A stretch of 64,000 nt of DNA from Antedon mediterranea (Eukaryota; Echinodermata; Crinoidea; Comatulida; Antedonidae), in the NCBI RefSeq assembly GCF_964355755.1, contig NC_092673.1:19659001-19723000 (forward strand), given 5' to 3'. The translations under genes were made by a program, and so were the position numbers. The notes under the pieces are model-generated. The model was not told the origin of the DNA and did not search any database. It saw nothing but the letters and a program-made list of their open reading frames with translations. Positions 4,382 to 63,416 of the stretch are shown here, piece after piece; position 1 is the first letter of the stretch; every line of letters begins with the position of its first letter.

Positions 4382-5577
4382 TATAGATATGCTGTGGTAA
4401 ACCATTCTATTTTGTTCTACTCATTTATTAATAATGATAATTATGATTATTTACCACAATATTTAGCAGCAATTGTTGTTGTTTGTATTAACAAAAAACA
4501 AACAATTTTACATAATGTCTGTTGTCAGTATTTATAAACTTCATTATGATTCCTTTCCAGAATGGTGACACTCTATTACATTCATATCTGTGGAGTGTAC
4601 GTACACCTACCTTAGAAATAGTGACTTGTCTCATTCAGCATGGGGCACCAGTAGCATTGCAAAATAAGGTATTGTACAGGGATTTGCTAGTGTAATAGGC
4701 TAACATTATATAGATCTGCTGAAGTAAACCATTCAGCAGTAATTGTTGTTGTTTGTATTTACCAAAAAAAAAACAATTTTACATAATGTCTGTTGTCAGT
4801 ATTTATAAACTTCATTATGATTCCTTTCCAGAATGGTGACACTCTATTACATTCATATCTGTGGAGTGTACGTACACCTACCTTAGAAATAGTGACTTGT
4901 CTCATTCAGCATGGGGCACCAGTAGCATTGCAAAATAAGGTATTGTACAGGGATTTGCTAGTGTAATAGGCTAACATTATATAGATATGCTGTGGTAAAC
5001 CATTCTATTTTGTTCTACTCATTTATTAATAATGATAATTATGATTATTTACCACAATATTTAGCAGCAATTGTTGTTGTTTGTATTAACAAAAAACAAA
5101 CAATTTCACATAATGTCTGTTGTCAGTATTTATAAACCTTATTATGATTCCTTTCCAGAATGGTGACACTCTATTACATTCATATCTGTGGAGTGTACGT
5201 ACACCTACCTTAGAAATAGTGACTTGTCTCATTCAGCATGGGGCACCAGTAGCATTGCAAAATAAGGTATTGTACAGGGATTTGCTAGTGTAATAGGCTA
5301 ACATTATATAGATCTGCTGAAGTAAACCATTCAGCAGTAATTGTTGTTGTTTGTATTTACCAAAAAAAAAACAATTTTACATAATGTCTGTTGTCAGTAT
5401 TTATAAACTTCATTATGATTCCTTTCCAGGATGGTAACACTCTATTACATTCATATCTGTGGAGTGTACGTACACCTACCTTAGAAATAGTGACTTGTCT
5501 CATTCAGCATGGGGCACCAGTAGCATTGCAAAATAAGGTATTGTACAGGGATTTGCTAGTGTAATAGGCTAACATTA
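4382..5577 (+). repeat. Higher-order tandem duplication of ankyrin exon units (2 x 598 bp)
   Basis: Two nearly identical 598-bp blocks (4382-4979 and 4980-5577). Each block holds two 108-bp ankyrin exons separated by one long and one short intron: exon starts 4561, 4832, 5159, 5430, spacing 271, 327, 271. The introns match as closely as the exons, so duplication was recent. The retrotransposon interrupts the left edge of the first block, so more copies may lie to the left. Confidence 0.92.
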
Positions 5578-8500
5578 TTTTCTATTTTGTTCTGGTTTAC
5601 CACATTATTTAGCAGTAATTTTTACTGTATTGTCTCATATTATGGCATATCTGCAGCATTGCAAAATAGGGTAATGTAGGCTTACAAAGAATTGTCAGGA
5701 CAATTTCACATTTTATTGTTATCAGTATTTATAAACTTCAACTTCAGTATCAATTAGCCTCCATATTAATCAATAGTATTACTACCTCAAAGAGTAGTAT
5801 TATTTAATCAGACTTACAGATATAGAATTCTCAAGTGTTTGATTTTTTTCACATTTTTCTTTTTTTACACATAGCACATTCTAACAAGTTTGTTTTGATT
5901 TAGATATTCATTTATAAGTCAACTATAATTGTAATGTGTTGTTGTTGTTTTAATATTTCATTTGTATCTGGATAGTATCCAAATATTATTTTCTTTGAAA
6001 GTTTATAGTAAAACTATTTGTTGTTTTATATTATGGCTCAAACATTTTAACACATTTACCTACTGTTCCAAAGTAAACTTTTATTCAATTTATCTCTCTC
6101 TCTCTCAATGTTGAAGGCGGTAGACTATAAACGGCAGCGCTTAAGTTTTGGTTTGGATACAGGAGTTATAGGTGGCGCACTGTACAAGTTGATGTCATTT
6201 ATTGGCAAATAGTAATTTCTATTCACGTCCTAATTTACAACCAATGTTAAAAAATAGTAAATCTACGTGTTATCACATGATGCTCTTTCATCCAATCTCT
6301 AGATGGTAAATGTTTGAGCCATGACTGTATGTATGTGATGCGTATTAAAGTGTGTTATATTGTATATCAATAATTTCTCAAAAACTACTAAGTAACTACA
6401 CCCATTTTTTAATAGGATGGAAATACACCTGTCTCTGTTTTAGAAATTAACAGGTGGATAGGGTACCAGAGAAAAACTGAAATTTTAAACTTCTTTAAAA
6501 GTAAGTGAAGTTTTAATTATTAAAATTTTGGAATCAACTAGTTTTCATTACAAACGATAAAGATTTGATTTTTTGTCCCAAATGAAGAAGACTGTCCAGA
6601 TAAAGAAAATTAACATTTATGATATCATTCACAGGTTCAGATGGCAATAGATTAAATAATCCACTGGGATTGTAGTAAACATGGAAGTTGTGATATGTTG
6701 CAAGATGTAAAAACCTTATTTTTTATGATTTGAAAATTGCAAATAAATTAGAAAAATTATTTTGCCATTACGATAAAAATACACAAAAATGCAAACTTTA
6801 AAATTCCTTTGAATTAACAATATTGAATAAATTTGGCCACACTTTTTTTTTATGGAACGTCATTTTTCACATCAAATCAATCTCTTTATTCATCAATACA
6901 TCAAAACAATTATACATAAACAAATTAAAGATGTGAAGATGAAAGGGACCTCCAAGAAACCCAAAGGGACTTGTGATAAAAGGACCACTATAAGCTAGTT
7001 ACAAAAAAAACATACAAAAAATAAATTAATAAAATTAATAAAAATCCTGTATAGACAAATACACGGGATGCGCATTGTTAAAGAATATTTGAACTTTATT
7101 AATTGCATATAAATGTAAATGTAGAATATTTTTTTTTTAAATGTAATCTATTTTATATATAATGGTATTATTTAAAATATGTATTCGCAATCGAGGCAAA
7201 CAATTTACGATAGGAGGAGATAAATATTGAATTTAACAAGGCCATATAGATGTCTGCAGTCGCTTGCTCAAGTTAGTGTTTACCAACCGACCGACATAGT
7301 GAGTTGTAGAGTGGCGTTGCACGTGACTAAAAATCTAATTTTCTTGTTAATCCCATTTTTTGTTTCCACAATGAATGAATTTTCTTCACATACTTTAAGC
7401 CAGCTTAAGAATTCTATTTCTCTGTATGTAAAATTAAGCATCATACATAATGTATTTTACCTTGGCTCCTACTATTGTATTATCTTGCAACTTCTTATGC
7501 AAATAGGCACAAAATAATAAGTAATATTTGAGCATAAACGCTTAAATAATTGTAAAAGTTGTTATAAATTAATGAGCTTTCAGTAGAGTACTTATACACA
7601 GAATAATAGAATATTGCATTCATATTTTGTTTCTTTTTCTTCCCAACTTGTTGTTACTTTTTTCTGGGAGCCTAGGCTTAAAGTTTTATACTTTTAAGGT
7701 TTCCTTCCACACATACTATGTTTTATTAATTATTATCTTACATGTTTATATAATTATTATTTTATGTATTTTTAATATGTGTGAAGAATATTTATTCAAT
7801 ATCTATTGAATATTGCATAAACGAATTAAATTGCAAATATTTATCCTTGGCTTGGTGTAGGCCTACTAAAAAAGGTTGAGAATACAGAACCAAAACTGAT
7901 AGTAATGTATGACAAAGTGAACAAACTTTTATAGTCTAAGGAACTTTCTTAGTCAATACATACAAGATTAAACCATTAGGTAAGAGTTCAAAATCTATTT
8001 CAAAGACCCTTTCCTTACAATTTTCGACGTTTTGTAAAAATAATGGAATATTACTTTAAAAACATTAAACCAGGTTATTCCTTGTCTTAGATGTACGTTT
8101 TATGGTAATTTATAATAAAATGAGAGAAACAATGTACTCGCAGTTTATTTATTATTATATCGTTTATATAGCCTGATCGTACCAGATGTAGCGATAGCCA
8201 GTGGAACAAAGCAAATCATTAACTTGTTTAGCCCAACAATGTTCATTTTTATTAGTTTTTCTTAGTTGAAACGTGTAACATTTAAAAGGAAATCTATTTT
8301 TATCCATTTCAGTGATTTGTAACCAATAACGAATAATAGAAATAAAGCAATCAATGTTTAAGCGTAGTCTGCTTAATTCTGATCTAACAGCCACGCTGGG
8401 TGCGCTGTTTCCAATGCCTAAAATAAATCTTGAAAAACGTGTCTGTAAATGATCAATTGGTGATAAATTCGAAAAGCCCCATGTCTCACTCCCGTAAATT

Positions 8501-11500
8501 AAAATTGGTAAAACTTTGTCAAAAATGTGTTTCCATATATACTCTGGTAGGTATTTTGTTTTGCTATTAATTGATTGTAAATAGTACGTACGTTATTTGC
8601 TTTTTGACAATTGTGTTCAATTGTGTTATTCCACTGACCATTTGAATTGAAAACCACTTCCAAGTAAGTATACGATTTAACAACTTCCATTTTAATGTTT
8701 ATGTAATACTGTACCATTTTTCATATTTTCTTAATTTTTCACCTTTTTTAAATACCATTATTTTTTATTTGTTTACATTTACACTAAGACCCCATGTGTC
8801 ACAACATATTTCCAATATAATTATTAAATTTTGTAAACCTTTACTGTGTCTGCGAATAGTAATAAATCAGCAGCATATAGCAGATGGTTTATAAAGCAAT
8901 CCCCAAATGGTATTTTTTCGTTATTTTGATTTAGCTAGTAATTCATAAATATATTAAATAGAGATAATGGCAGGGGTGACCCTTGTTGTATTCCAATTGA
9001 ACATTCAAATAGGAGCGTTAATGGTTTCCTATTTTTACATGCGCTAATAATTGGAAACTAAATAATAATATATATTATATTATATACCGTTGCTTCAATA
9101 GGCTAAAATAGTCCTTGGCTGTACTGCTAATAACTAATTGTACTGTATATTCATTACATTGGTTGTGGGGGGAGGGGCGGTGTTCTTCTAAACACCAAGC
9201 CCTTCAAAGTATAACTAAGCTCTACCAAGTGTATAAAGTGTATGTTTTACAAATATTTATATTATACAAACATTTAGAGTTTTTAATCAATTATGCAAGC
9301 AAGCAAGTATGACACATTGTACATTCTAGGCTGATGTTTAAATTTTTTATTTTTTAACAATTAATATTTACAAAAGTGTAGCGTATACACATAATGGGGA
9401 ACTAACAACTGGGGACAGTGGGCACGTTTTCTGAGCGTGTTTTAGTAGGACCAGAAAAGCGCCCTTATTGTAAGTCTTTAAAGGTGCAATTCCAGGTCTA
9501 TATTGACAAAATTGTTTGACATCAGCCTAAACCATGGTTGGGCTCGAGTTATCTTTATTGTGTTTTGACAAACAGGTATAAAAACAAAATTGATTTCTGG
9601 TCATAAAACAGAATATAAATAAAAACATTCAAAAAGTTCAAAGCATATTGAAAACTTACAATAGATGTTTTTAATCGCATTTCCTACTGCCTCATTCTGA
9701 ATCATACCAGTTATTCATTTCAGGATTACTTTATTTGCACTTTACCCATTGAAACCATGCTAATCAACCGTATATTGCTATAATTTCAACGATTTAGATT
9801 CAGGATCGCTGTCAAAAAATGTTGCAAACGTCTATATGTTTGGATGAGTTTGAGTTCCACAATTTTTTTTAGGACATAATTTAAATTAATAACTGTAGTT
9901 GTTAACTGTATACATTGTAGTTAAAAATATACATTGTTATTATTATTATTCAGAATGAATGATTGCTTGTACACAATCACCCAGAAGTTTTTGTAAGGCT
10001 TTGTATCACACAGAGCCTTATATAACCTTATACCATTGAAAAAAAAAAGCTATGACTTTTAATATAGTGTTTTTTATGAAAATATATAATATGTAATATT
10101 TTTGTTTTGTGCATTTTTTTAGATTTATCAAGTACTGTTGATGAGCAATTTCAGAAACAGACAAGTGACAAACAGAAAACAAAACCAGAGAGTGGTAAGT
10201 TTAAGAATAAGAGCTGCTGTATGTTTTATGATTGTATCTATATATAATTTAACAGAAGTGTGATTAAAATGGGATTTCAGTAAAGAGAGAATTAGATGCT
10301 AATGTTATTTAAAAAATCATTTCTGAGCGGTACTGTAAAAAGGCGAAAAAGTGTCCAACTGATAACAAATAAAAAATGGAGAGATTTTATTTATCATAAA
10401 TAATAACAGTTGATTGTTTCCATTTCCAAGAATGCTCGGAAACACATATTTTTTATTTCATATTCTTGAAGTGTATGTATCATATATATGATTTATTATG
10501 AAATTAAGAGTACAAAAGTTGATAAAGTCATCGTTAATTGCATTTTAAATTCAAAAAAATTTATTTCGACAATCAAAAATTTATGACATTTTCTTAGGCC
10601 GAAATAACAAACTTTAACTTTCTTCCTTCAAAATAAAAGTTCATATATTAAAGTTAAAAGTATATAGTTTGACAGTGCATCGTTTTTTAACATTTTTAAA
10701 GATGTCATCATAGTAAAAAATTATAATTCAATGCGTTATGTAATAATCTATCTGCGCCAAAGTGGTTACTGCATAGTAAATACACGGAGGAATCTTTCTA
10801 CAACTTTTAGTCAGTTGTGTATGGCTCGGTGGTCTGTGCTCGTGTCTATGGCATTCAAGGTACCGAGATCGAGTCTCACATTGGGAAAGGAAATAAGATT
10901 TTTTTTAATATCCGTATTGTTTGTTCAATTTTATTTGTTAGTGTATAGATTATACACATAATTTATAATGAAATCTAGATAAAAAGTAAGTAATGTCTTT
11001 ATTACTATGTAACAATGTTGTATGACATTATACGCGGAGGGATCTTTGATCGGATTGTGATACCGGCTATTGCGTTAGCAAGATCCTATATTATAAATAT
11101 TTAAAGATTCTGAGAAAATCAATCAATCAATATATCTTTTAAAAATCAATTATCTTTATTTAAATCAATGCATATAACCTAATTCTAGTTTTTTTTTACT
11201 TTATTTACTCCAGATGTTTAAAAAATCTATTAAAATCTTGATTCAATTTTCAGATATTGCTGCACGTGAATTAGATTTTCAGAAAGCATACAATGAAGCC
11301 TTGAAAGATGGATCCGTTCCAGTCAATCTTGGAATGCTTAAAGTGATTGGGCAAGAAGGAGTGGGTAAAACATGCCTCATCAATGCATGTCTTGGAAAAG
11401 AGTAAGTAGTAGTAGTAGGACAGTGAAATGAACATTACAAAATATTTGTGAGTCAACTAAGAATTACAAGCCAGCCAACTTTATTGATTTGTTTTTGATA

Positions 11501-14500
11501 AACTACCACTTTTTAAATATTGCAGTGATAGATAACAATAGTTGAATAAAAACGTCTATAAATATATAAATCGGTTTCTACAATAATCATAATACCATCA
11601 AATTTTCTATTGATTATAGAATTTACTTTTAGGCTTGTATTTAAAAAAAAGATCATACGAATGGTCGGATAACTTGACTTCCTAAATGTATAATTAATGA
11701 ATATATTAAAATGGTTTTGAAGTAAAAGGAGAAAAGTGCATGTTTTACAGTACCTGTACTTAAAATGACTGAAGTTCATAGTTGGTTTCAAATATTTTTG
11801 TCAGATTTGAGGAAAAGCATGTAGTTACAGATGGCATAGCGGTGATAAGAACAGCAAGCACAACATGGACAGAGGCTAAAGCTGATAGTGGTAAACATGA
11901 ATACATTTAGCATATTACTCTTCCCACCATCATACGTTATGTAACAATATTATCAATAATAATTATTATCATAGACACAGACAAGTTCACAATGAAATGG
12001 AGACATAGAATTGAAATCAATGCATACAACTGTAGTATGGTGTCATATTTTCACATACATTACAATTGTTACTCTATGATTCCTTTATAACGCACAAGTT
12101 ACTGTACTGTATGTTACATTCTTTGATGATGTACTGTAATTGTAATTTTACTTCGACAGTAGTAAAATATCCAAAGTATAGTCACATATGAACGTATGTA
12201 CTGAAATAATATTTACACACTTTCTCTTTCTCTACAGGTGATCCTTCAAAACAGTATACAAAAATGGTCACTGACAAATTGAGAGCAAAGGAAACTGTAC
12301 GCGTATGTCAGTAATAATGAATAAAGTAGCACCTACAGGACTATTGCAAACCAGTCACTTAGGCTTTCTTTCTAAATGAATCAATGAGGCATTATGAGCA
12401 GCTATTTCATTTTTTTTGCTTCAATGCTTTTAAAATTTACTCTAAAAATTAATTTGGTTTTGCTTTTGAGAGTAAATAATATTAGTTTTCTCTTATATTA
12501 AATTGTAAACAATACTGTATTTAACTTTGAATAAACATTTATTTCTTTTTTATATCCATTTATTGTTTTTGTTTTATGTGTCAGATTGACATGAGACCAC
12601 CTATAGATGATAATGATGAAAACAATGATGATAGCAAAACTGATGACAACAATGATGACAACAATGATGGTATGTAACTTTCCATTTCAATTCTAATTAT
12701 GCTTACATTTTTTTTTACATAAATAAGTTGCAATTATCAGTTTGCAATTTCTGTCATATTAAAGATTGTCCCCAAAAACATGTTAAAAACAATTTATTAA
12801 ATTCAGACTTTGAATAGATTCTTTTGTAGTCAATCACTTCTGTAGGGAAAAAAAAGGAAACAATTAATGTTTTCACTTATAAAATAACAAAATAAATGGT
12901 TAAATTCAACCAAAAACCCATTGACTGGCTGTCATTTTGACTATTTTTTTTTTAAAATTACAGTTTTTTAGGTAAATACATTTTTTTACAATCCATTTTT
13001 TGGTCAAAGTGGATAACTATTAGGTGATATTAAAATGGCATATTAAAAAAACAATTATTTTTTTCAAGGGGACAATACTTCTTTAAGTTCATAGTTATTC
13101 AAAATAATAAGATTATTAATTAGATTTTCCAATTTAATGTAACTAAAGAAGTATAAAATTATGTTATCAGATTTATAACTTAGAGGCAACCTATCTGTGT
13201 AACAATTATGGTGACGGTAATTTAGAGAAAACATGGCGGCGGCCATCCCACTCCTAGACAGTCCAAAGACGCTGTACATGGAGGCTTGATGGGCATGTTT
13301 CTTAGTTAGCAAAGTTAAACAAAGATGAACTAAAACACCTAATTAAAACCTTAAAAGGGGCTTACAAAGATGCTTATTTGTTTGTATGAATCTAGAAGAA
13401 TCAAAGTGAATTCACAGTCTACACCTACTATATAATATACATAAATATATACTTGGCTTATACAAATGTGCAGATTAATAGTTTGTACATATTAAAGTAT
13501 CCTTTTATATCTACCATCCCCTTTCGCTTACCGTCCCGGTGCGAAAGCTCATATGATGATAATGAAGACAACTATACTCATAGTAACTTTTTAACTGACT
13601 GATTAAATATGATGAATTAAAATTTTTGAAATAAAATTATGCTTGTTACGCTGTTTGTGGAATGACCAAAAAATTTGTTTCCACTACAGGTACTGATACA
13701 GCTACTCAAGCTGTTCCATTTGATACAGATCAACAATTAGATAAGGATGTAATCAAGAAAGTTGAGGAAAATAATGAGGAGACTTTGGAAGAAACATTCA
13801 ACATCTGGGACCATGGGGGACAATTAATATACCATGGTCTACATCGGGTAAGTAGGTTTCTGTACAGACTAACATGATTGTATGGCCAAGGTATAGTTGG
13901 TCTCCCGTCATGCTGATCTGGTAGGCGCTTCACTGCTGGCTGCCGTTGGTCAGTGTCAGTGGTCAAGCTCACTTTTCAGTTAAGCTTGAGGACAACTATT
14001 AATACCTTTACCTTTTACCTTTATGAAAGTCTTTATTATATTAATATGTATTGTCCCCTGAAAAAATAATTCTTAACAATTTTTTTTTTAATATTCCATT
14101 TTAATGTAACATTATAGTTATCCACTTTGACCACAAATTGGATCGGAAAAAAAAATTTATATACCTGAAAAAATGTAATTTAAAGCAAAAAATTGTCAAA
14201 TTGGCTACCAGCCAATGGATTTTTATATTTTGTCAATTTATAAGTGAAAAAATTATTTTTTTCGTTTTTTTTTTTCAATGGAAGTGATTAACTTTATTAA
14301 AACTACAAAATAAATATTCAAATTCTGATTTAATTAATCTTCATTTTTCATGTTTTTGGGGGACAATACATCTTTAAGGTCCACATACAAATAAAAATAA
14401 TATTTGTTCATATGTTGTCAAAAGGCCTTCAAGAATATTAATCAGTCAATATTTAAATATTTTTGCAGATGTTCATGACACTTCAAGCACTATATATTGT

Positions 14501-17500
14501 TGTGTTTGATCTCAGTAAACCCTTGGATGATCTTGCTACTTTCATTGATTCATCTGGAGTAAGTATTTCTAGACCATGGCGGAAGTAAGGTATTGTGATT
14601 GAACAAGTCTTTTATAAGAACAGTTTTTAAAAACTAAGCATTTCAAGTTTAACTGTGGTTAATTGTTCTGTAATTCTTTTTCAGAGGAAATTTCAACATC
14701 ATTGGACCAATCTCCAGTTCATATTATCTTACATCCTGTCAGTTTATTCTCATAGTCGTATTGTGGAAGAAGATGAGGAAAATGAAGTTGACAAACCAAC
14801 TATCCTTATTGTGGGTACACACAAGGGTAAGCTTGGTAAGACTGAAGAAGAACAAAATGATGAGGTTAATACTTTTTTTGTTTCTATATTATTAAAAATA
14901 GCCACAACCAAAGATACATTGCAGTTATAACTGTTTTTAAATATTACTTTAAATAAATTACAAAATTGACACATTTTTATTATGATATAGGCGTAAACTG
15001 TTATAAAAATTATTTACAAACAGGCAGAAAAGGTGTTTAAAATTATTCAAGATGTGCTTAAAACTAAACCATATGGAAATCATGTCTACTACAAATATTT
15101 TGCCATTGAAAACAGCCAAGAAACTACAGATAAGAGCTTTAGTGATTTCAAACAAGTTACTGATACACTTATGAAAGCTTTAGAACAGCCTTTTCCTTTA
15201 AAGTGGATGCGTTTTCGATGTGATCTACATGATCTAAGAGGACAAAAACAGCCCTCCTTTTCTTTGTGTCCTTTAAAAGAGGTAAATGGTATTTGTTTTG
15301 TTTATATTTTTCGAAATATTAAGTTGCAAGTATCTATCAAGTATCTAAAAAAAAAATTAACGTTTCTAAATATAAGTACCCTTTAATTAAAAAATGTCCA
15401 TAGCCTAGCCAATTAGATTACAATATTCAAAATCAAATTTTCATCTCAGATATTTGCTGCCATTGTTTTATTTATAAATTATGTGTTTGAAAATACTGAG
15501 GTAATTAGCCATTGAAATTGAATATTTCAAACTATTTTTTCATGTAATACCCACATTTTTTATTTAATTCTGCATAATACTAATTATTATTTCTTTTAGA
15601 TCAAAATTCTGACAAGTAAGAATGGTATTGTTGAAGAAAAAAACAAATCAGTCCTGCTTAACTTCTTGTACGATCTTGGTGAAATTGTTTACATGCCTGA
15701 CAACAAATTATTAAGAGATAAAGTCGTGCTAGATCCGATGAGGCTGGTTGAAATTGTCACCAAATTTGTAACTGTGGTTCCCCCAAAATATCCCGTAAGT
15801 AGACTCATGTAATGTCTTGCATTGTAAAAACGTGTTACAGTAGTATAATTACTCCTGTTCTGTGTAATTTATTATTCCTTAGCAAAGAATTTGTCATTGA
15901 TAATATTTGATAGAGATGCTTAACATTTTCTATAGATAAAATAAATGTATGCCGTAAGGCATCATTTGTAATTTACTGTAATTTTTTTACAAGTTTTAAT
16001 TAGTTCACTTTTAATATTCTGCTTTCAATCTATTATAATTGAAGAACTATAAAAGTGAATAGCAAACTAACTTGGAGTCATTTCACAGTTTAACCCTTTT
16101 ACTGCGTGTACCCGGTATTACCGGGTATAAACATGTCGTCCAACTGCATATAACCATCATTACCGGGTATGCCGGTATTAAACTATTTTCCTGCACTACA
16201 TGTGACCTCTATATTTTTTAATATCGTCTTCTGTAATGATGTCATTAGTATGCAAATTACCATTTTTTTACCCACCACAAAAATATTTACAAAATTATCT
16301 CATTTAGTAGGTTTTTGCAATTTATTAAAAATCACCTGTCTCTCATTGTTACGCACAGTGAAAGGGTTAAACCACAATACTGTATTATACCAAATACCAA
16401 CACATGGTTCATCTATATTCTAAATGCTATTTCCGTCATCCTCACAAAATACGATGCATGGTTGATAGTTGGTTTCTTTTTAGACCGCTAAATTTAGAGA
16501 ATCTTTTGATAAGCTGGACAAAGGCATACTGGAAGAAGACTTGTTGCGAAAATTATGGAAAGATAGTAAAGTTGACAACGGAAAGAATTTTGAGTTCCTT
16601 GTAGCACTGATGATTCAATTAGGTTTCATTTGTGAGAGGGAGACAACCAGCAGCCAAGATGTGGCAAGTACATCTACAGTAGGTTTTGTTTCTTTAATCT
16701 TTCATTTTATGCATGTAAGATTTGGGATAAAAAGTATTATTTTAATAGTTTGGATGTTTAATGTTCAGACAAAGTTTGAATAAACTTTCTAATGAAAATG
16801 TCTACATGACAGAGTATCTTTAGTTTGCTTAAAATAGTTTAAATGGCATTGTTACAAATTAACAATTTCAGAAATCAGTTGGAAAACGATCCTTTTTTGT
16901 GCCACTGCGACTTGCTATCAAGACAAGTAAAGTGAGACAATTACCTGATGATTCACAATCTATCAGCAGGCCTATCTATTATGACTTTGAGGGATATCTG
17001 CCAGACGTGTTGTTTCCGTATTTAATTATTGAATTCCTTAACAAATTTCAAAAGGAAGGAGTTAACCCAATACTCGCATGTAATTATGCAGAACTTTACC
17101 TCGACGAAAATCATCATGTGACTTTGTCTCTTGACAAATTTATTACTAAGAATGATGAGCGAAAGTTCTTGTTAAAGGTAATATATAATCTCTAATGTTC
17201 AATAAATATCACTAAATTATGAAAGTTAAATATTGTTTCTTAGTCTTTCCCTAATCTGTCATGTCAGAATCTACTTTAAATGCATATAAAACTAAAACTA
17301 AATTCTGATAACAAAACATTACATCTATTTTTACTTTCTAGATGGCTATTAAAAGAACAGATTCTTTTGATGAAACGAGTAATGAGGAGCCTTCAGCTGA
17401 AGCATGTAAATTGGTATGTATCTATACCAGTTACGTTATCTATCTATTTGGAGGTAGTTTATGAAAATGTCAGGTTTGCTTGATGTCTGAAAATGTCTGC

Positions 17501-20500
17501 ATATATACAATGTATTTTAAAAACCAATTACAAATTACTTTCCAACATTGCATTGTATAGTATAATAATGAATGTTTATGAGATGGATGGTAAGAATATT
17601 TTATGAGTTGAAAGATTGACTGCACTATTTTTAACAAAGCAGAGCCGAAAATAGAGCAGTCAATGAATAACATATTCTCTCCATTCAACGAATGCAAAAC
17701 ATTCATTATTTATTTTATAACACACCTATTTTTTATTAAATTTATCCATCGTAAATCAGTGACGAATGTTAGGCCCGGGAAGCTAGATCATTTAAAAAGG
17801 CGATGATCCAACTTTGGACACGGAGTAGAACCGTAAACAGCGTAAACAAATTACATCCATGTTCTCTTTTATTTTTGTAATTGAATTAGTAAGTAATTTT
17901 AATATGTATCTGCCTATTAAAAGATTTATTCCCAATCAAGTTTTCAGATTTACACCATAAATCTGAAAACATTGCCTGCCTCACATTACATAAAATGTCT
18001 AGCTTTGTAAGCTACTGCATCATTGATGCTTTCATATTTGTTGATATGATATGTGTTAAATTCAATTAAATTCAAATCAACATTAAATTTATATCTTTAG
18101 GTTTTGTCAACAGTTGAGAAGTCATTCGAGCAATCTAAAGATGGTGGTAGAAGAGGGATTCCATTCAAGAGATGCATTCCTTGTCGGTGTAGTGATCAAT
18201 TAGACAAAAAGCATTTTCAAATTCTTAAAGATTTCCAATGCAGGAAGTTTACATGCACAGAAACTGGCAAGTCTGTTACGATGGATGTCACATGTTACAA
18301 GCGGCTGTTTGGAGGTAAGAGTCATTAAATTTATTTATTTTTATTAAGTACATTTTCATTAATACACTACTTTCTTCATGAAGGACTCTCACTCATCCCT
18401 AGAGCACAGGAAACTGAAAAAAAAAAGGCTATTTCTGTTCTATAAACAATTTGTGACCTATTTCTGCAAAAAAGTGACATGTTTAAATAATTATAGAATA
18501 GAAAAAGAGGATACTGTACCTTATTTGAAAATAGACATATTTGATAATACTCTTCCAGTAGTAGTACAACAATCATTATTGATAATCTATACATTGTTAC
18601 AACATGCTGCTATTAGCTGTGATATCTTCATTCATCTTACCAGTAGTAGTACTATCATAATCATTATTAATAATCTATACATTGTTACAACATGCTGCTA
18701 TTAGCTTTGATATCTTCATTCCTCTTACCAGTAGTAGTACTATCAGAATCATTATTGATAATCTATACATTGTTACAACATGCTGCTATTAGCTGTGATA
18801 TCTTCATTCCTCTTACCAGTAGTAGTACTATCAGAATCATTATTGATAATCTATACATTGTTACAACATGCTGCTATTAGCTGTGATATCTTCATTCCTC
18901 TTACCAGTAGTAGTACTATCAGAATCATTATTGATAATCTATACATTGTTACAACATGCTGCTATTAGTTGTGATATCTTCATTCCTCTTACCAGTAGTA
19001 GTACTATCAGAATCATTATTGATAATCTATACATTGTTACAACATGCTGCTATTAGTTGTGATATCTTCATTCCTCTTACCAGTAGTAGTACTATCAGAA
19101 TCATTATTGATAATCTATACATTGTTACAACATGCTGCTATTAGCTGTGATATCTTCATTCCTCTTACCAGTAGTAGTACTAGCAGAATCATTATTGATA
19201 ATCTATACATTGTTACAACATGCTGCTATTAGCTGTGATATCTTCATTCCTCTTACCAGTAGTAGTACTATCAGAATCATTATTGATAATCTATACATTG
19301 TTACAACATGCTGCTATTAGCTGTGATATCTTCATTCCTCTTACCAGTAGCAGTACTATCAGAATCATTATTGATAATCTATACATTGTTACAACATGCT
19401 GCTATTAGCTGTGATATCTTCATTCCTCTTACCAGTAGTAGTACTATCGGAATCATTATTGATAATCTATACATTGTTACAACATGCTGCTATTAGCTGT
19501 GATATCTACGAAAGCCCATTAATGCCATTTTAAGTATATGTTTTTCGAACGTAATCCGTTCTAACGAATTAGTAATTCGTTTGAACGGATTAATAATCTG
19601 TTCAAACGAATTAGTAATCCGTTCAAACGAATTGCAACATATACAACAAGTGCCATTTAAAGTATATGTTGTAATTCGTTTAAACGGATTACTAATCCGT
19701 TCAAACGAATTACTAATTTGTTTAAACGGATTACTAATTTGTTCAAACGAATTATTAATTCGTTCAAACGAATTACTAATTTGTTTAAACGGATTACTAA
19801 TTTGTTTAAACGAATTAATAATTTGTTTAAACGGATTACTAATTCGTTCAAACGAATTAGTAATCCGTTTAAACAAATTAATAATTTGTTTAAACAAATT
19901 AATAATTTGTTTAAACGGATTACTAATCTGTTTGAACGAATTAGTAATTCGTTTGAACGAATTAGTAATCTGTTTAAACAAATTAGTAATTTGTTTAAAC
20001 AAATTAATAATTTGTTTAAACGGATTACTAATTCGTTTAAACGAATTAGTAATTCGTTTAAACAGATTAGTAATCCGTTTAAACGAATTACTAATCCGTT
20101 TGGACGGATTCCTAATTCGTTTGAACAGATTATTAATCTGTTTAAACAAATTAGTAATTCGTTTGAACGGATTAGTAATCTGTTCAAACGAATTAGTAAT
20201 CCGTTCAAACCAATTGCAACATATACAACAAGTGCCATTTAAAGAATATGTTGTAATTCGTTTGAACGGATTACTAATCTGTTCAAACGAATTACTAATT
20301 TGTTTAAACAGATTAATAATCTGTTAAAACGAATTAGGAATCCGTTCAAACGGATTAGTAATTTGTTTAAACGGATTACTAATTTGTTCAAACGAATTAC
20401 TAATTCGTTCTAACGAATTAGTAATCCGTTTGAACAAATTATTAATTTGTTTAAACAAATTAATAATTTGTTTAAACGGATTACTAATTCGTTCAAACGA

Positions 20501-45474: not shown

Positions 45475-46092
45475 TTTATAATACAAAGAATATAATGTAA
45501 CTTATTATTATAGGAATAAAATAATTAGAGTGAGTAGTAAATGTAACTTATAATTAGAGTGAGCTGTGTTTTTGTAGTTGTTCCTAATAGCTGATTATAG
45601 ATATAGAAAATTGTTGAATTTAATTAATATTATATATCATATTCGAATAATGATGATTATTAAACAATATTTAAAACAATGCTGAATTTATTACTTAAAA
45701 TTGAAAATGATTTTGTGGACTTTCTTGAATTTTTATTCATAAATCTTAAAACAGTAATTATGATAAGAATGCTATCTACTGAATTTATTTCCTGAAATTA
45801 GAAATGATTTTGTGGCATTTCATTAATTATACTGTATTAATATTCAAATAATGATTATGATTTCAACAATAATTATGATGCTAATCTACAGAATTTATTA
45901 CATTGGAAAATATTGTGGTGTTTTATGAATTTATATTTATTATTTATATTATAATCTTAAAAAAACAATTACAATTTCTGTAACTGTTATACTAAATGTA
46001 TTGATACTGTTTTTCATTCGTATAGATCTCTCAGAAGATTTAGCCCAATGATGCAATAAACATGGACATTCTATTCATACAAATGTTAGATG
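45475..46092 (+). pseudogene. Relic of gene 1 last intron and last exon
   Basis: The sequence follows gene 1's 23690-24310 block by block. The exon relic (46026-46058) has the same acceptor (TATAG), then ATCTCTCAGAAGATTTAGCC, and shares CCAATGATGCAATAAACATGG. A 22-base deletion inside the exon breaks the frame. It shows that gene 2's locus once had the full gene 1 layout. Confidence 0.8.
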
Positions 46093-47622: not shown

Positions 47623-47639
47623 CATTATACTGAACTCAT

Positions 47640-55200: not shown

Positions 55201-58200
55201 ACTAGACAATCACAATACTGTATGTTTGGTAACATTTCCACTCAAAGAAACAAAAGTCTAAATATCATACATTATTGAGTTAGGAAATAAAGACTTTAGT
55301 TTAAGAATTTTGAAGTCATAAAATTGTCTCAAACATTTTGGGGTTCAGTTTCTTCAAATCAATAATCAAATTATCTATAATTCAAAGTGATATTGTTAAA
55401 AATCACACAAAGTGTGAACATGATTTATTTCTTTATTCTTTATGGATTTATTGTAGATGGTGTCATTTTAAGAATCTTCCATGCAATATAATCTGTAACC
55501 ATAATTACATGACACCATTGGATGTAATCAGTAGTGTACAGGCTAAATAATATTCTTTTATGGAATTTTGCAGGCTAAAGCAAACTTTGAAATGGAAACA
55601 AATTTCCAGCAACTGAAATTGTCTTTCAGTGGACACTATAGAGGTGACAAGTATAAGTGGCTGAGGTTCTTCCTTTCGATCACGTAACTGTAGAGGATAT
55701 TACACATTCTTTTAATAGTGATTTTTTAATAGACAAACTCGAGCAGGAAAGTATAATCTCACCACAGAATGTCAGCCTTCTGTTAGATATTGCTTTAGTA
55801 ACACAATTGACGGATGCCGTAGATCTGGTAATTCAGTATATGAATGTCAATGGTCAATACACTGATAAAGAAATTTCAAAATATCGAAAACAACTATTTG
55901 AGGTCTTAAGAGAAAGTGAACAAACTAATTTGAGCAGGGTTATTGCTCACTATGGTATGAAGTCAACTGAAATTAAAGATATTTGGGATGCAGTTTTGAT
56001 GTTAGAGATTTGTGGCGATTTAGAAGATGACAATGACAAAATTAAACATTTTGAGAGTCTTCTTAAAATAAGCTCAAAGGAAGCACTAACTGGTAATAAT
56101 TTTTTCCTTTTGATTGTATAGTTTTAATTTTTTAGGGTAAAAAAAAGATAATAACATCAGAGGGTTAACTAAGGCAATGTAAAGATGTAAGCCCACCGTA
56201 AAGTAATTTGGTAGGTCATTCAAACTGCTTGTGATTGATCAACTCACTTGCGTTGCGCCTACATTGTTGCGTTGTGTCCAAGTAGGAACCAAGCTTAAGC
56301 TATCTTTTGTACAGTAGATCAACTTTATATTGTGAATGAAAATATGGCGGTGCAGAGATTAAAGCTTCAAAACGCTTCCCTGCTCAGCATTGTTTGTCAT
56401 CTATTGAAGTTGTCTTCCGTTTTGTGTGAAAAGTGTATCCCTTGTGGTCAGCAGCTTGATATTTGACCTAGGCATATGAAAATTGATTCACATGTTCCCA
56501 TACAGCAATGAAACCAGTCTTTAAAATCTTATCGGGAATCGGGAAATAAATTTTTGAGTAATCCTGCTAACTAACAAACACACACAAACACACCCGATCT
56601 ACCTCATAACCTCTTGCCATTCTGGCAGAGGTAATAAGTATTAAAATAATTATGTAGAATATATACTGTACACAAATTTAAATTATAGTTTTTGTTATTA
56701 CCTACCTAAAAAACCATTTTTTGTTGAAAAAAGATTACTAAACACTGCAAAATTCCAAAAATACAGCAGCCGCCATCAAAACCAAAACAATTCTGGCAAT
56801 TTTGACACCCCAAACTTTTTCCCTGGGGTGAATAAAATATAGTTTAAAACCTCTGGTCATTTTGATACCTCATTACGCGCTAGAATCCCCTCCCCCAACC
56901 TCTACTGCTGGCCCCAATAAAGAAAAAACGTGAACAACTATTTTTTAAATGTAATTAGACTATAAACTAAACACATCTGTTTGATATATCCTGTTGAAAT
57001 AAAAAAAAATTGCGGAAAATGGCCAATCTTGCATTGTACTGAAGGTGATCATGGAAATTGCTATAACAAATACCATAAAAGTAATATTTTTATTCTGCAG
57101 ATCAAATTGTGGAGGTAATTGTGGATTCTACAGGTGGAACGCTTCACCTTAAGGATGAAGACATAAAGTTAGAGATACATTCTGAAGCAATTGAAGGGGA
57201 GGAAGTGAAAGTAACGCTAGAAATTTTTTCTGAGGAAATAGACATTCCCATATCTCATCCTCGGGAATCAATAATATCACCTATAATTAAATGTGGACCA
57301 GAAGGTACCACCTTCAACAAGCCTATTTCATTGTCATTTCCACACGATGCTGTAAATGAAGAGAATTGGGAATTCACTCTACTTGTTAAAGATCACATTC
57401 AAGATGAATGGAAACAAATAGCATTGACAAATGATAGAAAGGACGTTCATTTTACTTTAAACAAAGGTCTATGCTGTATAACATTAAATCATTTTAGTTG
57501 GTATGCACTAAAGGGTCATGTCAGAAATGCCGTTCATGCTAAGAAAAGAATGTTGTTAGGAGTTTTTGGAAAGATGCTTGCAAACGATGAGTATCAACTT
57601 CAAACAAGACTTTGTAAGCCGTCGGATGTAAAGGTAATTAATATATAATTAATTGTTATATTTGAATAATGTAGTTATAATTTGTATTATTTTACTTACA
57701 TTAACCTTTTAAAATATAGATATATTTTAATAAATGCATTTTGCTAGGTAGCCTTGTACTTTTTATTATGCCAAGTTAACTACTTTAGGTAATATTACTA
57801 TTGACCAAATATCTGATCCCAACCGAGAAGTAACAGTGACTTTTGGCTTTTCGCAGAATTATTATTTCTAGAAATGGTGACAAAGTGGATTTTCTGCTTC
57901 TTTTCACAAGCACTAAATTTGAGCTAACGTCTAATACATTGATTAAAATTGATGGCAGAAACATTCAAAATGTCATGTTGAATCATAAATTGAATTGATT
58001 CCTGATCATTATAAAATATACAGTGAAAAAGTGAACACGATGATTACATCTGACTTCCCTCAGATAATAGAAAACGTGTAATAAATCGGGAGATCAAACC
58101 TGGTTAAACAATTTATGCAGATTTGAAAAGGGTGTAGGAAACAAATATGTACACAAATAACATTAAGTTTATGTATTTCAGAAGATAAAAGAAGACCACA

Positions 58201-58868
58201 GAGAAACCGGTGAGCAGCTTTTACGACCACCTGTAGATTTACTTTTTATGTATAAAAAGATGAAAATTACTGTAGCGGCAGTATCAGAACAAGAATGGAA
58301 TGTTCAAGATGAAAATGTACAAGTAAGAATATTTGTTCTAATTTACATTACATGTATTATACAAATCATCACAATTTTTTAGGTTTGCATGGTAAAGAAT
58401 ATGCATTAAACACGTTTTTGCAATAATACCACATAACTTGGGAATTCATAACTTGATCAATAAATAACAAAATCTCCATTGCTATCAGTATCAACCATGG
58501 ACCATGATGCTGACTTAACATAGAAAGTCTGTCTTTGATTAGTCTCTTTGAAGGATGCACACCATTCTTTTTGTGGATTTATCATTGAGAAAAAAAAGAA
58601 AATTAATTTATATATAAATAAATAGTAATATTAATCACCGCAGCAACCAATTTTTTATTTACAATGCCTTAGAGCTGTAACATTTTATGCATGACTTTTT
58701 TCCTAGACTGTCACTGCTGAATACTTATGGCGTGGAACACCATTGAAGACATTTCTTTTAAGAAGAAGCAATTCATTAGAAAATGTCTTAAAGGCAACAG
58801 TATCACTGTCACAAGAGTCAAATCGTATTGATCCAGTGCCTGTGTATTTTAAGTATTTCAAATGCTAA
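49265..58868 (+). CDS. Gene 3: tandem DED-ZU5-UPA protein, frameshifted
   Basis: Exons: 49265-49287 (MDRMKAN), 50257-50324 (Lys/Glu-rich), 55581-56092 (tandem DED), 57101-57633 (ZU5), 58182-58322 and 58707-58868 (UPA), stop at 58866-58868. All phases match except that the DED exon lacks one base near 55672-55676. Upstream the frame reads YKWLRFFL, downstream FDHVTVEDI. ZU5 shows STGGTL and CGPEGTTFNKPISLSFP, then HFSWYAL (HFS at 57490-57498), the self-cleavage context of PIDD. ZU5-UPA without leucine-rich repeats or death domain, preceded by DEDs, is unlike vertebrate PIDD or UNC5. The frameshift could be a real null allele or a sequencing error. The two small 5' exons are the least certain part. 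Confidence 0.72.
49321..49912. repeat. 37-bp tandem array derived from a SINE
   Basis: Unit TATAGCGCATATAGGCAAGC plus TCTCAATGCGCTCCTTA, about 14 units, some interspersed with AACATTATTACCAAAGTCAT. Flanks (AATAATAATAGTTCATTCTTATA and the stretch to 50015) match the SINE at 51630-51945, so the array arose by amplification inside one SINE copy. Confidence 0.9.
51630..51945 (-). repeat. tRNA-derived SINE
   Basis: On the minus strand the head has an A-box-like GTGGCGCATTGTGTTGGG and a B-box-like GGTTTGAATCT (about 51885-51875). The body includes the TTGCCTAAGG-type segment, and the tail is AATAATAATA at the left end. Lies in gene 3's intron. Confidence 0.75.
52872..53000 (-). repeat. Dispersed repeat end with GACA/GACC microsatellite
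   Basis: Inverted relative of 38870-38985: AAGTCGCGT..., a run of GACAGACCGACAGA, then ATAGTGAACTATAGAGTCGCG. Both ends are present, so this may be an internally deleted copy. Confidence 0.7.
53210..53347 (+). pseudogene. Unassigned exon-like coding stretch
   Basis: After an acceptor (TATTGCAG, 53202-53209) the frame reads ARSRQADGDYGLNK and continues to a TAG at 53345-53347; a second frame then carries SLDRGVTRELLQIHGL. A matching donor-ended exon, SAELRTYLAGQ, lies at about 50645-50677 in compatible phase. After a MITE, 53570-53730 reads HVVHPNLVLLPEPEL. Codon-like quality suggests a decayed gene piece split by the MITE. I do not recognise the family. Confidence 0.35.
53393..53541. mobile_element. 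MITE with AAAGCTCTGTCTACAC ends
   Basis: Left end TATAAAGCTCTGTCTACACTA, right end GTGTAGAGAGAGCTTTATA, about 25-bp imperfect inverted termini around 150 bases. A related stretch without clear ends lies at about 50925-51045. Confidence 0.75.
54735..55088 (+). mobile_element. MITE, TATTGTCCCCC family, copy D
   Basis: Full-length copy: starts GTATTGTCCTCC, ends GGGGGACAATACAATATCTTTAA. In gene 3's intron. Confidence 0.75.
56240..56640. mobile_element. Dispersed repeat ending in a hairpin
   Basis: Intron DNA ending with an ACACACAAACACAC run and the hairpin CCTCTTGCCATTCTGGCAGAGG (56611-56632). That ending is common in transposon-derived repeats of marine invertebrates, to my recollection. Left boundary uncertain. 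Confidence 0.35.
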
Positions 58869-59439: not shown

Positions 59440-62400
59440 GTGATGTTGAGACAACAAGGCCAAATCCAGGTATGTTATATAATTATATTATGATAATGCT
59501 TGAGATTAATTTCTTTTTCAATAATGTTTTATGAAGAACTCAAGCTTTAATTATTTAATTTTTTATTTGTTTCATCACATGCCGGGACAGGTGTTCCTTC
59601 CAGTACAGATGTGTCTTCTGGTGCAAGTGTGTCTTCTGATACAGGTGTGTCTTCTGGTACAGGTGCATCAGACCAATGTATTAAGCAAGGTAATAACACT
59701 CTTTAGTTACAGTACTAATGTACTTACATTTAGAAAAATAAGTAAAAAAATAAGGGTTTTCTCAAATCTATCATGTTTACTGTATCTGTACGGTGACATT
59801 TAGCTGAGACAAGATTGATACAAGTTTGTACCTTGGTCTGATGGCTTAAAAATATATAATCTGAATCATCATGTTTCATTTAAAATGGTTACTTCTTATA
59901 AATTGGTTGTAAACATACTAATATTCATGTTATTAGTGATAGGTTATGGTGACTAAAAGAATATAATTAATTTGTTGCAGAAACAAGAAATCCGTTGACA
60001 GAAAAGTTAATTGTGTTAAATGATGATCTCAGTGAAGTCTTTACAAAGAATAAGAGAAAGTTACTTTTTTTGAGATGTTGTCTAAATGAGCATGTTGAAT
60101 TACAGGTCCTTTGCAATAAACATTACAAAGTAAAAGATTATTTTAATGACCTCTCTGATAAAGCAAAGATTAAACCTACTGATGTCAGCCTTCTGCTGGA
60201 GATTGCAAGGCTATCCGAAATTCAGGAAGCTGAAGATGTTGTACAACAGTACATGAGAGACAACAATGTTCAAAATACTGATCAACATAGATTGTCTCCG
60301 TATAGAAAGAGGTTGTGCAAGGCATTGACACAGTTTAACCCAAATGAATTAAATAGAATTAATGCTTTTTATGAGTTGGAATTACCAACCATTTGGGATG
60401 TAACATTTGAGTTAGAGAGGAAAGGAAAATTAAGAGATGAATCACAAAGAAAAAAGTTTGCAGATCTTCTTGGAGCAATCCCAAAGGAAATACTATGTAA
60501 GTCAATTTATGTAATTTATAACCATACTATAAATCTAGGAAAAATAAACAATAAAAAATAAAATATATATAATTAAATTAAAGAAAGGAAAACAAAAAGT
60601 TATACATTATTTTAATAATGCCTAATAACCAGTCAAAGATTTTTTAAATTATTTTCTATTTCCTTCCGTTTTAACTTTATTTTGACCCAGTCATTGTTCG
60701 ATGAATCAATTGATCAAATGCAAAATCTGATAGTGAACTAATTCAGACATGTGAAGTCTCAAAAAAGCTATACCCCAGTGGTTAGAATTATACCACACTT
60801 TTCAAATCTCATAATAGTAATTACCATGCCCTCTAATGATATATAATTTTGTTTACTAATCAATGAATGTTACATTTATACCAAACAAAAATATTACTGC
60901 ACATACTGACATGCTATGGAATTATAATATTACCAAAATCTATGTTTTCACAGATGGACAAGATGATTTCAGTTTTGCATCACTGCAGTCTGTCAACCGA
61001 AGCAGTCAACAAGGTATGATCTATTAAAAATATATTGTCACCCTGAAAAAAAATTTTTTTTTATAAATATTTTTGTTGAATATGCTATTTTATGTCACAT
61101 AATCGTTATTCAGTTTGACCAACAATTGGATCAGATAAAAAAATATTGATTTACCTGAAAAATTGTAATTTAAAGCTATAAATAGTCAAATTGACTGAAA
61201 GTGAATGGGTTTTTTTGTTGAATTTAAATGTTTATTTTTGTTTTGAGTGAAGTGAGTGTGAAAACATTACTTTTTTAAATTTTACTGAAGTGATAGGCCT
61301 AAACTTTATTAAAACTGCAAAATGGCCTATTCAAAGCATATTATATTAATCTTTAAAATACATACAAACATGTGTATAAATATGAAATTGCAGTTGTACT
61401 GTGTCAATTATTTTGCCAATTACTAGATGTATATTTAATTAACCCAGAATTAAACAAATGACCCACACCACACCAATATTTTGGTTCCTTTAATTGTTCA
61501 GTCAGCAAAAATACTGAAATTATATATGTCAACACTGACCTGTTCTTGTACATTACATTTTCTATTGTAAAATATTATGCATTAATCTTTCCTACAAATT
61601 GTTTTAGCCCTAAATTCATCAAACTATTTAGTTAGATATTTTATTCATTTATTTATAAACATATTTTACATGGATACAATATTTATTTACACATATAAAT
61701 TACAAGATAAAAACTACAAACTTTGATAAAAATAAGAAAATAGAAACTTGTTATTAAATCTTGGCAACGTGTATACTTGGAAATCAGCGCCATCTAATTT
61801 TATTTTGACAAACACAAATTCACTGAATTTGTGCCATGTAATGGTGAAATTGTTTGCAATTCTGATGGTTTTAAATTTTACTATGTAGGAAGTTTAACAC
61901 AGGTGAAATGTTTAGTTATGTAATACATTAACATATAATACAATCTTATTTTAATCATTCATTATTTCAGGTTCACAGCAACCACATAGGTAAGTGTTAT
62001 CTTTATGAGTAATCTCACTATAGTAGTGTAAATATGCAATTAGAGCACCAATGGTACAGAAACAATTTTATATTGTTATTGTGACTTTAATATTAATTCT
62101 CAGTACATATATTCTGGATATATTCCACAATGTCAATATAGCCTACTTAGAGTGAACTGTAACATTTGACATCCCCGAGGGAATGACATTTTTCTCAAGG
62201 AACTATATATTTTCCTGAAACAAGGCTGAGGGAAATATCATTTCCAGTAGGATGTCAAATGTTGTAATGCACCAATATAAAATGTGATATTTGTTTTATT
62301 ATATAGCCAAATATCAGTAGACCTGGCTGGGTATGCCAACTCATCTGCTGGGTCTGTCGGCTTTTCGGGTATGTCCCTATCAAGCCAGGTCAAAACCACA

Positions 62401-63416
62401 TTTGGTATATGCCTAATAGAGCCTAATCTATTTATTTTGTTATAAAGTTTAAAGACTAGATGTTCGGCTTATTGATCGGAAGGAGTGTGCTCCTTCTAAT
62501 AAACAGAGGTGTCCCCTGCACATAAAAGTTTATAATCCAATCCCAAGTTGCTGCACATAAATTACTCTTTCAATATAATACTAGTCCTCAAAAGTAAACA
62601 GAATTTACAGTCAAAATAAACTCGATGTTTACAATCCACAAAACGGTAGCCATTCCAACCAATCACGTTCATGTATTCACATAAGTTATATAGAACATTA
62701 TAACTGGATCCATAACTTGATCCATGATGAAAATTGTTTGATTGATTAATTATTATGCATCATCTTAATTCAATATTTATAAATAAAACAACAAGTTAAA
62801 GAAACAATTTGAGACATGCTAAGAAATGTTCATAAAATTAACATTCATCAATATCTTTTGAATGCATTTATGCGATCTATTTACAGTGCTAAGCAAATAA
62901 ACCAATTCTTAATGAATTTTTAATTTTGCGTATATATCTTTATTTAAAGGAGACAAAGGATACCGACAGGTAATTTAACCATTCTATTTTTAACTCCTGA
63001 CGCATTTTAAAGTTTTATTTCTCTTGAAAAACTAAATGCAATTTAGGATATGATACGATATTATTTATTTTCATTTTAACAACATGGTTCAAAGGAAATT
63101 TGGTTCGTTTGTAAGAAAAATAAATGATTACCTAATAAACAATTTTGTAATTTCCAAAAAGATAAATTTATATGAATGTTGTATTTTTAACTAATGGTGA
63201 TTTAAAAAAAACAACTTTATGAAGTTTAAATTTGTTTGTATTTCAGAGTACTGGGTAGCACTTATTTGTATTTTAGTAGCAGTCTTTGCAGTTTATATTT
63301 ATGGAAATATAAAAACCTTATTTTTGTATTTTGTTGCTATTGTAATTCTAGTTGTATTTATTGGTTATTTATGTGATAAACTGTGGAAGTTTTACACTCA
63401 AAACAGAGGGTGCTAA
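59440..63416 (+). CDS. Gene 4: tandem DED protein with C-terminal membrane anchor (5' incomplete)
   Basis: Exons: 59440-59469, 59591-59689, 59981-60496, 60954-61013, 61971-61989, 62307-62368, 63247-63416, all phase-matched to stop TAA at 63414-63416. The first two encode a Ser/Gly/Val linker with near-repeats of TGVSSG. The third is the tandem DED exon (VSLLLEIARLSEIQ; YRKRLCKALTQF; TIWDVTFELERKGKL). Next come short Ser/Gln-rich exons. The last has two hydrophobic helices (WVALICILVAVFAVYIY and TLFLYFVAIVILVVFIGYLC) with a short basic tail, so the DEDs would face the cytosol from a membrane. A 20-base exon candidate (62950-62969) would break the frame if included. No initiator ATG is seen before the linker, so the start is unknown. 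Confidence 0.68.
61024..61350 (+). mobile_element. MITE, TATTGTCCCCC family, copy E (diverged)
   Basis: Starts TATTGTCACCCTG and follows the family order (GTTATTCAGTTTGACCAACAATTGG, AATTTAAAGC, CTTTATTAAAACTGCAAAAT). Right end eroded. In a gene 4 intron. Confidence 0.65.

What the first reader, a model, noticed from the sequence alone, without database searches (positions are those of the whole stretch)
4561..63416. Same-strand cluster of genes sharing one tandem-DED exon in three architectures
The exons at 22692-23228, 55581-56092 and 59981-60496 are the same type: one phase 1-1 exon with two DEDs. They are joined to (i) ankyrin-Roc-COR, (ii) ZU5-UPA and (iii) a membrane anchor. With the ankyrin-only gene 2 this looks like a locus-encoded death-fold pathway: GTPase receptor, self-cleaving adaptor, membrane component and possible decoy. 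Domain families are known; the combination and pathway role are my inference.
Basis: partly seen in the sequence, partly recalled or inferred. Interest (0 to 1): 0.85.

Follow-up and report, generated by a model that had tools for sequence, protein, structure and literature searches.

The report
Shared tandem-DED exon in sensor genes
In an unidentified animal, one exon encoding a cell-death adaptor (two death-effector domains) sits in or beside many genes of three sensor classes (ROCO GTPases, ZU5-UPA proteins that may cut themselves, and NLRs), which suggests a large, rapidly duplicating repertoire of internal alarm proteins; the window shows a few members of it, not a self-contained pathway.

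Summary
The exons at 22692-23228 (A) and 59981-60496 (C) are homologous, phase 1-1 and best explained as tandem death effector domains (tDED): the model of C matches only vFLIP/cFLIP/caspase-8 tDEDs (Z 6.9-9.1, next 4.0), and a 21-exon profile matches one PDB sequence, caspase-8 (weakly, E=0.13). Two details fail. Exon B (55574-56092) carries a 1-base deletion relative to its intact sister copy, so its frame is broken here. The 'membrane anchor' ORF has no second copy in the genome. ZU5, UPA and C keep order in seven paralogous loci, so architectures (ii) and (iii) are one gene.

The pathway reading is not supported. The window is a slice of a 3.7-Mb, mostly same-strand cluster in a genome with at least 150 copies of this exon, 120 COR hits and 103 NACHT hits. 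The exon lies downstream of COR (30/30 same strand; null 2.8), downstream of ZU5 (11/11; 1.3) and upstream of NACHT (30/103; 0.9). Best reading: a phase-1 tDED cassette shuffled among ROCO, ZU5-UPA and NLR proteins, probably feeding caspase-8-like initiators. Ankyrin repeats are one 108-bp phase-0 exon each and duplicate in tandem. Function, expression, phylogenetic spread and organism are untested.

The parts
4561..5537 (+). Four near-identical ankyrin exons (4561-4668, 4832-4939, 5159-5266, 5430-5537), one repeat per 108-bp phase 0-0 exon; made by a ~600-bp tandem duplication (99% identity) of a two-exon unit
11178..11402 (+). ORF holding the Roc P-loop exon (G1 motif GQEGVGKT)
   Evidence: 87 genomic matches
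13635..14927 (+). Remaining Roc exons (switch-II motif WDHGGQ in 13635-13874; VVFDLSKP in 14457-14585; THKG in 14631-14927)
15600..17192 (+). COR exons (15600-15809, 16484-16780, 16863-17192)
   Evidence: COR-A E=6e-11 over cutoff
18101..18314 (+). Post-COR exon whose phase-1 donor joins exon A in frame
22692..23228 (+). Exon A: tandem DED, phase 1-1, C-terminal domain of the Ank-Roc-COR protein
23508..23566 (+). Terminal exon giving ...GDSEKK-stop (the paralogues give GNSEKK-stop in the same place)
23684..24316 (+). Probable 3' UTR/3' end; among the loci held, found only behind A-type DED exons and at 45470-46088
39655..42763 (+). Gene 2: five diverged ankyrin exons (40554, 40834, 41082, 41999, 42656) and a candidate first exon; no Roc, COR or DED found before 55.5 kb
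45470..46088 (+). Segment 80% identical to the 3' end of gene 1; suggests gene 2 is a deletion derivative of the receptor gene
55574..56092 (+). Exon B: tandem DED upstream of ZU5, frame broken by one missing base near 55674; intact in the sister copy L047
57101..57627 (+). ZU5 exon, with motif NHF/SWY (Ser codon at 57496)
58182..58841 (+). UPA-like exons 58182-58322 and 58707-58841 (homologous to the UNC5B UPA region)
59440..59469 (+). Small linker exon (a short ORF here is conserved in L048/L049)
59981..60496 (+). Exon C: tandem DED, phase 1-1, at the C-terminal side of ZU5-UPA

Best explanation
The window contains members of a large, actively duplicating family of intracellular signalling genes built around one shuffled, symmetrical phase-1 exon that encodes two death effector domains. 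Here the exon forms the C-terminal signalling domain of (a) an ankyrin-Roc-COR GTPase (a ROCO protein) and (b) a ZU5-UPA protein with a PIDD-type HF/S motif, here also with a second, frame-broken tDED upstream. Elsewhere in the genome the same exon lies just upstream of NACHT exons, as the N-terminal domain of NLRs would. Likely mechanism: (1) the ankyrin array, one exon per repeat and easily duplicated, binds a ligand [inferred]; (2) nucleotide-controlled Roc-COR, or ZU5-UPA cleavage with release of UPA-tDED, switches the protein on [inferred from LRRK2/DAPK1 and from PIDD/NLRP1/CARD8]; (3) the exposed tDEDs nucleate DED filaments that recruit tDED caspases, of which the genome has two candidates [inferred]. 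Shown: exon homology, tDED fold of C (predicted model), domain identities in the window, positional architectures, copy number, phase. Not shown: transcription, binding, cleavage, signalling, immune role.
For: At least 150 exon copies (409 first-look candidates). COR-to-DED downstream 30/30 same strand (null 2.8); ZU5-to-DED 11/11 (null 1.3); DED-to-COR 2 (null 2.8). NACHT with an upstream module DED 30/103 (null 0.9; downstream 4), or with any DED 52/103 (null 2.0). Phase 1 in 34/44 and out 39/44 exons by crude splice scoring. tDED fold. In-phase join Roc-COR to tDED to stop. UNC5B ZU5-UPA match E=2e-13; HF[S/T/C] kept in all family copies that could be read; HF/S is the PIDD cleavage motif (PMC3210808). 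Two candidate DED-DED-caspase genes on C2. Recent duplications: 97.7% (window 53.5-60.1 kb), 94-99% (7.4-25.1 kb). A-type DED exon dN/dS median 0.63.
Against: No transcripts were available, and gene linkage rests on order, strand and phase. DED sequence scores are below Pfam's cutoff in the window, and the R of the RxDL motif is absent (A in 37/39). About half of the module exons (71/151) had no Roc-COR, ZU5, NACHT or caspase partner found in range. ZU5 copies with HFC or HFT may not cleave. No expression data, no relatives; an immune role is an inference from analogy.
Confidence: 0.62

Rival explanations
1. One reading: a locus-encoded pathway in which a GTPase receptor, a self-cleaving adaptor, a membrane component and a decoy act together through matching tDEDs.
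For: All genes lie on one strand within 64 kb and share the exon type.
Against: The same arrangement is spread over 3.7 Mb with dozens of paralogues; the membrane ORF has no other copy; (ii) and (iii) are one gene; B is frame-broken.
Confidence: 0.1
2. Tandem cassettes of separate genes: an ankyrin-Roc-COR gene followed by an independent tDED gene (likewise ZU5 then tDED) that duplicate together, so the apparent fusions are neighbours.
For: No RNA evidence of splicing; introns of 3-5 kb separate the last post-COR exon from the tDED exon; some ankyrin arrays lie 15-20 kb from their partner.
Against: Compatible phases and a continuous ORF through the join; the ATG in exon A is ATT in several copies, so it is not a conserved start; the same exon sits N-terminal to NACHT and C-terminal to COR/UPA, the usual death-fold positions.
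Confidence: 0.15
3. The families are mostly recent, degenerating duplicates in a repeat-rich region with little function: relaxed selection and expansion by drift.
For: B frameshift, ankyrin-only derivatives, satellite and retroelement insertions, dN/dS median 0.63 with 22 of 243 A-type pairs above 1.
Against: Nearly all module exons found are open (one search lists few stops); six P-loop exons are 100% identical in protein; the ZU5 HF[S/T/C] position is kept.
Confidence: 0.2

Closest known systems
DAPK1 (third group of Roco proteins)
   Same: Ankyrin repeats, Roc, COR and a C-terminal death-fold domain; no LRR (PMC6337361; ankyrin order from own knowledge)
   Different: No kinase motif found in the window; tandem DED instead of one death domain; dozens of copies instead of one
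PIDD1 / NLRP1 / CARD8 / UNC5 ZU5-UPA proteins
   Same: ZU5-UPA followed by a death-fold domain; HF/S motif as in PIDD (PMC3210808)
   Different: The death fold is a tandem DED; in this gene a second tDED lies N-terminal to ZU5; some copies carry HFC or HFT
Caspase-8, c-FLIP and viral FLIP tandem DEDs
   Same: tDED fold (Z 6.9-9.1)
   Different: Both DEDs are encoded by one phase 1-1 exon and attached to GTPase or ZU5-UPA switches; the R of RxDL is missing
Brown-algal LRR-ROCO genes
   Same: ROCO family in which each repeat is encoded by one exon of fixed phase that is duplicated and shuffled; proposed immune receptors (PMC11378527)
   Different: LRR instead of ankyrin; 72-bp phase-2 exons; [quoted passage not shown]
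DED/TRADD-N lineage-specific expansions in oysters, amphioxus and sponge
   Same: Large lineage-specific expansions of DED-bearing proteins with variable partners, including STAND NTPases and ankyrins (PMC8195603)
   Different: Those are centred on TRADD-N; here the partners are Roc-COR, ZU5-UPA and NACHT

Membership tests
Death effector domain (DED), tandem | Six-helix death fold in tandem | tested here: met
   AF2 model of C, then VIA-align: 17 tandem-DED entries Z 6.9-9.1, all others 4.0 or lower. Foldseek alone gave no E below 0.44
Death effector domain (DED), tandem | Sequence match to PF01335 | tested here: inconclusive
   18/21 members match, best 1.8e-5, none of the window exons above the cutoff; related exons in the C10 cluster score 30-34 bits and DED hits beside them pass the cutoff
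Death effector domain (DED), tandem | RxDL motif (R of the charge triad) | tested here: not met
   In DED1 the DL is mostly kept but R is A in 37/39
ROCO family | Roc GTPase domain directly followed by COR | tested here: met
   Roc E=1.9e-15 and COR-A 6.1e-11, both above cutoffs, on joined exon ORFs
DAPK1 group of Roco proteins | N-terminal CaM-dependent kinase | tested here: inconclusive
   No HRDxKxxN or DFG-like motif in six frames of the window, but the first exons of gene 1 may lie outside the window
DAPK1 group of Roco proteins | C-terminal death domain | tested here: not met
   The C-terminus is a tandem DED
ZU5-UPA-death-fold (PIDD/FIIND-like) | ZU5 and UPA followed by a death fold | tested here: met
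   ZU5 E=3e-17; phmmer to UNC5B 3g5b through the UPA region E=2e-13; tDED downstream in the window and 7 paralogous loci. Pfam UPA itself did not score
ZU5-UPA-death-fold (PIDD/FIIND-like) | F/S autoproteolytic site | tested here: met
   NHF/SWY in the window; HF[S/T/C] in all readable family members
ZU5-UPA-death-fold (PIDD/FIIND-like) | Actual self-cleavage | not testable with these tools
   Needs expressed protein
NLR (NACHT) with N-terminal tDED | NACHT in the same gene as the tDED exon | tested here: inconclusive
   Not in the window; module exon upstream of 30/103 NACHT exons, null 0.9; no spliced model

The most novel reading that the evidence does not exclude
An animal has turned ROCO GTPases into an NLR-like repertoire of intracellular immune receptors (ankyrin array, Roc-COR switch, tandem-DED output) and wires ROCO, ZU5-UPA and NACHT sensors to the same death-effector pathway by shuffling one symmetrical tDED exon; repeat-by-repeat ankyrin exons supply diversity.
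Probability: 0.4. Interest if true: 0.82.

Novelty: new variant of a known kind. Interest (0 to 1): 0.62.

Why it matters
ROCO proteins are studied mainly through LRRK2 and DAPK1, with four genes in vertebrates; the expanded receptor-like ROCO sets I found described are in brown algae. A large animal ROCO family with a tandem-DED output would give a natural system for asking what ROCO GTPases sense and how Roc-COR switching controls a death-fold platform. A single exon shared by ROCO, ZU5-UPA and NLR genes would be a clear case of one adaptor surface serving three kinds of molecular switch, and lets the hypothesis of a common caspase-8-like output be tested with isolated domains.

Tried and rejected
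Membrane-anchor exon: rejected as part of the system (unique in the genome, poor splice fit). ATG of exon A as start codon: rejected, ATT in several copies. Pfam UPA search: only 4 hits genome-wide, so UPA was recognised through UNC5B instead. Pfam Roc search: swamped by ordinary small GTPases, so COR and the P-loop exon were used as ROCO markers. AF2 of exon A: too low in confidence to search with. Organism identification: chromosome-size and genome-size searches of papers failed; Membranipora membranacea excluded by GC 38% versus about 30%. Gene 2 plus ZU5 as one gene: ankyrin arrays do lie upstream of ZU5 more than by chance (8/15, null 2.2, p=0.0012), but four of the six gene-2-like arrays have no ROCO, ZU5 or DED hit within 25 kb downstream, so undecided. 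Literature: searches for ROCO with DED, NACHT or expansions gave no animal ROCO-DED family, but the library holds open-access papers only.

Full report
Observation. The three exons are real and homologous: A-C 39%, A-B 38%, B-C 37% identity. A and C are open with phase-1 ends. B, as it stands in the window, is not: its frame switches near 55674, where one base is missing relative to a sister copy that is otherwise nearly identical (C4:19623501-19633500, L047). The base lies in a short T run, so an assembly error is possible; I describe it and do not decide.

DED identity. Pfam alone would leave this open (A: E=0.0014 for the first domain, below cutoff; B and C: none). Four further results settle it to my satisfaction: 18 of 21 family members hit PF01335; a profile of them retrieves one PDB sequence out of 177,635, caspase-8, across DED1 and the start of DED2, though weakly (E=0.13); exons of the same module in the C10 cluster score 30-34 bits with PF01335, and DED hits beside them in that cluster pass the cutoff; and the AF2 model of C (mean pLDDT 70.8) aligns with tandem-DED structures only (Z 6.9-9.1, 132-151 residues) with a clear gap to the next hit at Z 4.0. 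Foldseek by itself gave no significant E-value, and the A model was poor. The R of the RxDL motif is absent.

Gene (i). The window carries ankyrin exons, a Roc domain and a COR domain, all above curated cutoffs on joined exon ORFs. The post-COR exon at 18101-18314 has a strong phase-1 donor and joins exon A without a break; the protein ends six codons into the next exon, and paralogues end in the same place. Genome-wide, 30 COR hits have a module exon within 15 kb downstream and all 30 are on the same strand (null 2.8). So A is a C-terminal domain. This differs from the three described Roco groups (LRR-RocCOR, LRR-RocCOR-kinase, DAPK1; PMC6337361).

Ankyrin exons. Each repeat is one exon of about 108 bp that starts and ends in phase 0. 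The four in gene 1 are nearly identical and come from a ~600-bp tandem duplication at 99% identity. At least 150 such exons exist (587 candidates), in arrays many of which lie 2-17 kb upstream of a P-loop exon, or 9-17 kb upstream of a ZU5 exon. This resembles the one-exon-per-LRR organisation of brown-algal ROCO genes (PMC11378527).

Gene (ii)+(iii). ZU5, two UPA-like exons and exon C keep their order in paralogous loci (L047-L054; the more diverged copies do not show every exon). The ZU5-UPA part matches UNC5B over both domains (E=2e-13). UNC5B has no HFS at the aligned place; the window has NHF/SWY, the PIDD HF/S motif (PMC3210808). Family copies have S, T or C there. Other ZU5 exons in this genome also carry HFT, so the motif supports but does not prove cleavage. 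B lies 1 kb upstream of ZU5 in the window and L047 and is not detected in the 1.5-2.2 kb upstream of ZU5 in L048-L052 or in L053; in L054 (C11) a diverged tDED stands between COR and ZU5, giving the order COR-tDED-ZU5-UPA-tDED, which could be one gene or two.

Gene 2. It has five ankyrin exons and no Roc, COR or DED found until B at 55.6 kb. A segment at 45470-46088 is 80% identical to the probable 3' end of gene 1, which among the loci held occurs only behind A-type DED exons. A deletion derivative is the simplest reading. Several near-identical arrays exist elsewhere on C4. A decoy role is untested.

Scale. C4:15.9-19.8 Mb alone holds 41 P-loop, 37 COR, 34 module and 17 ZU5 hits, nearly all on the + strand. 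The module exon lies upstream of 30 of 103 NACHT exons (null 0.9), and any DED upstream of 52 (null 2.0), versus 7 downstream (null 1.8): the arrangement expected of NLRs with N-terminal tDEDs. By position, the 151 module exons fall into NACHT-downstream 32, ROCO-upstream 27 (+2 mixed), ROCO-downstream 10, ZU5-upstream 9, none in range 71. Two ded-ded-caspase arrangements on C2 are candidate partners.

Selection. A-type DED exons: median pairwise dN/dS 0.63, 22 of 243 pairs above 1, median dS 0.28 (NG86; related sequences and possible gene conversion). This is compatible with relaxed constraint or mild diversification and does not separate them.

What remains inference. Ligand binding, GTP switching, cleavage, filament formation, caspase recruitment and any immune role. 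The step most likely wrong is the immune role; the one best supported is the shared exon across architectures.

Noticed in passing
L063 (G000:C5:22071601-22077600, minus strand): A caspase-like exon in an array of eight caspase hits ends about 290 bp upstream of a Roc P-loop exon followed by Roc and COR exons on the same strand. It reads SDG and QAS where caspases have SHG and QAC, so it looks inactive: a possible pseudocaspase-Roc-COR fusion.
   Followed up: partly
G000:C4:16.57-16.72 Mb, C3:17.09-17.15, C3:25.19-25.29, C9:14.11-14.17 Mb: Places with identical-scoring tandem-DED hits and equally or similarly matching caspase-like hits 57-106 kb apart, as if a large element were present in several copies; nature (host duplication or mobile/viral element) not examined.
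   Followed up: no
L054 (G000:C11:20700501-20710400, minus strand) and G000:C1:2.27-3.28 Mb: COR followed by ZU5 (and DED in some) on one strand: possible Roc-COR-ZU5-UPA-tDED genes, a ROCO analogue of NLRP1.
   Followed up: partly
G000:C1:2295473-2299903 (minus) and C4:17846623-17850479 (+): Several DED exons in a row (four at about 1.3-kb period on C1) directly upstream of a P-loop exon: possible N-terminal multi-tDED ROCO genes.
   Followed up: no
window 1-3929 (-), 21272-22005 (-), 30140-32008 (-), 33760-35730 (+): Retroelement coding remains, judged by eye from the ORFs: Ty3-like gag/pol at the left edge, reverse-transcriptase-like ORFs, and a possible DIRS-like element; they sit between or inside the gene models.
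   Followed up: no
window 18550-21150, 24500-27860, 47057-47655: Long tandem repeat arrays (an 88-bp unit and others) inside the presumed intron before exon A and between genes, some open in several frames; they account for several of the long ORFs listed.
   Followed up: no
window 7366-25105 vs G000:C4:17238001-17255000; window 53466-63195 vs C4:19623501-19633500: Recent segmental duplications at 94-99% and 96-98% identity; the second match ends just before the unsupported membrane-anchor ORF.
   Followed up: yes
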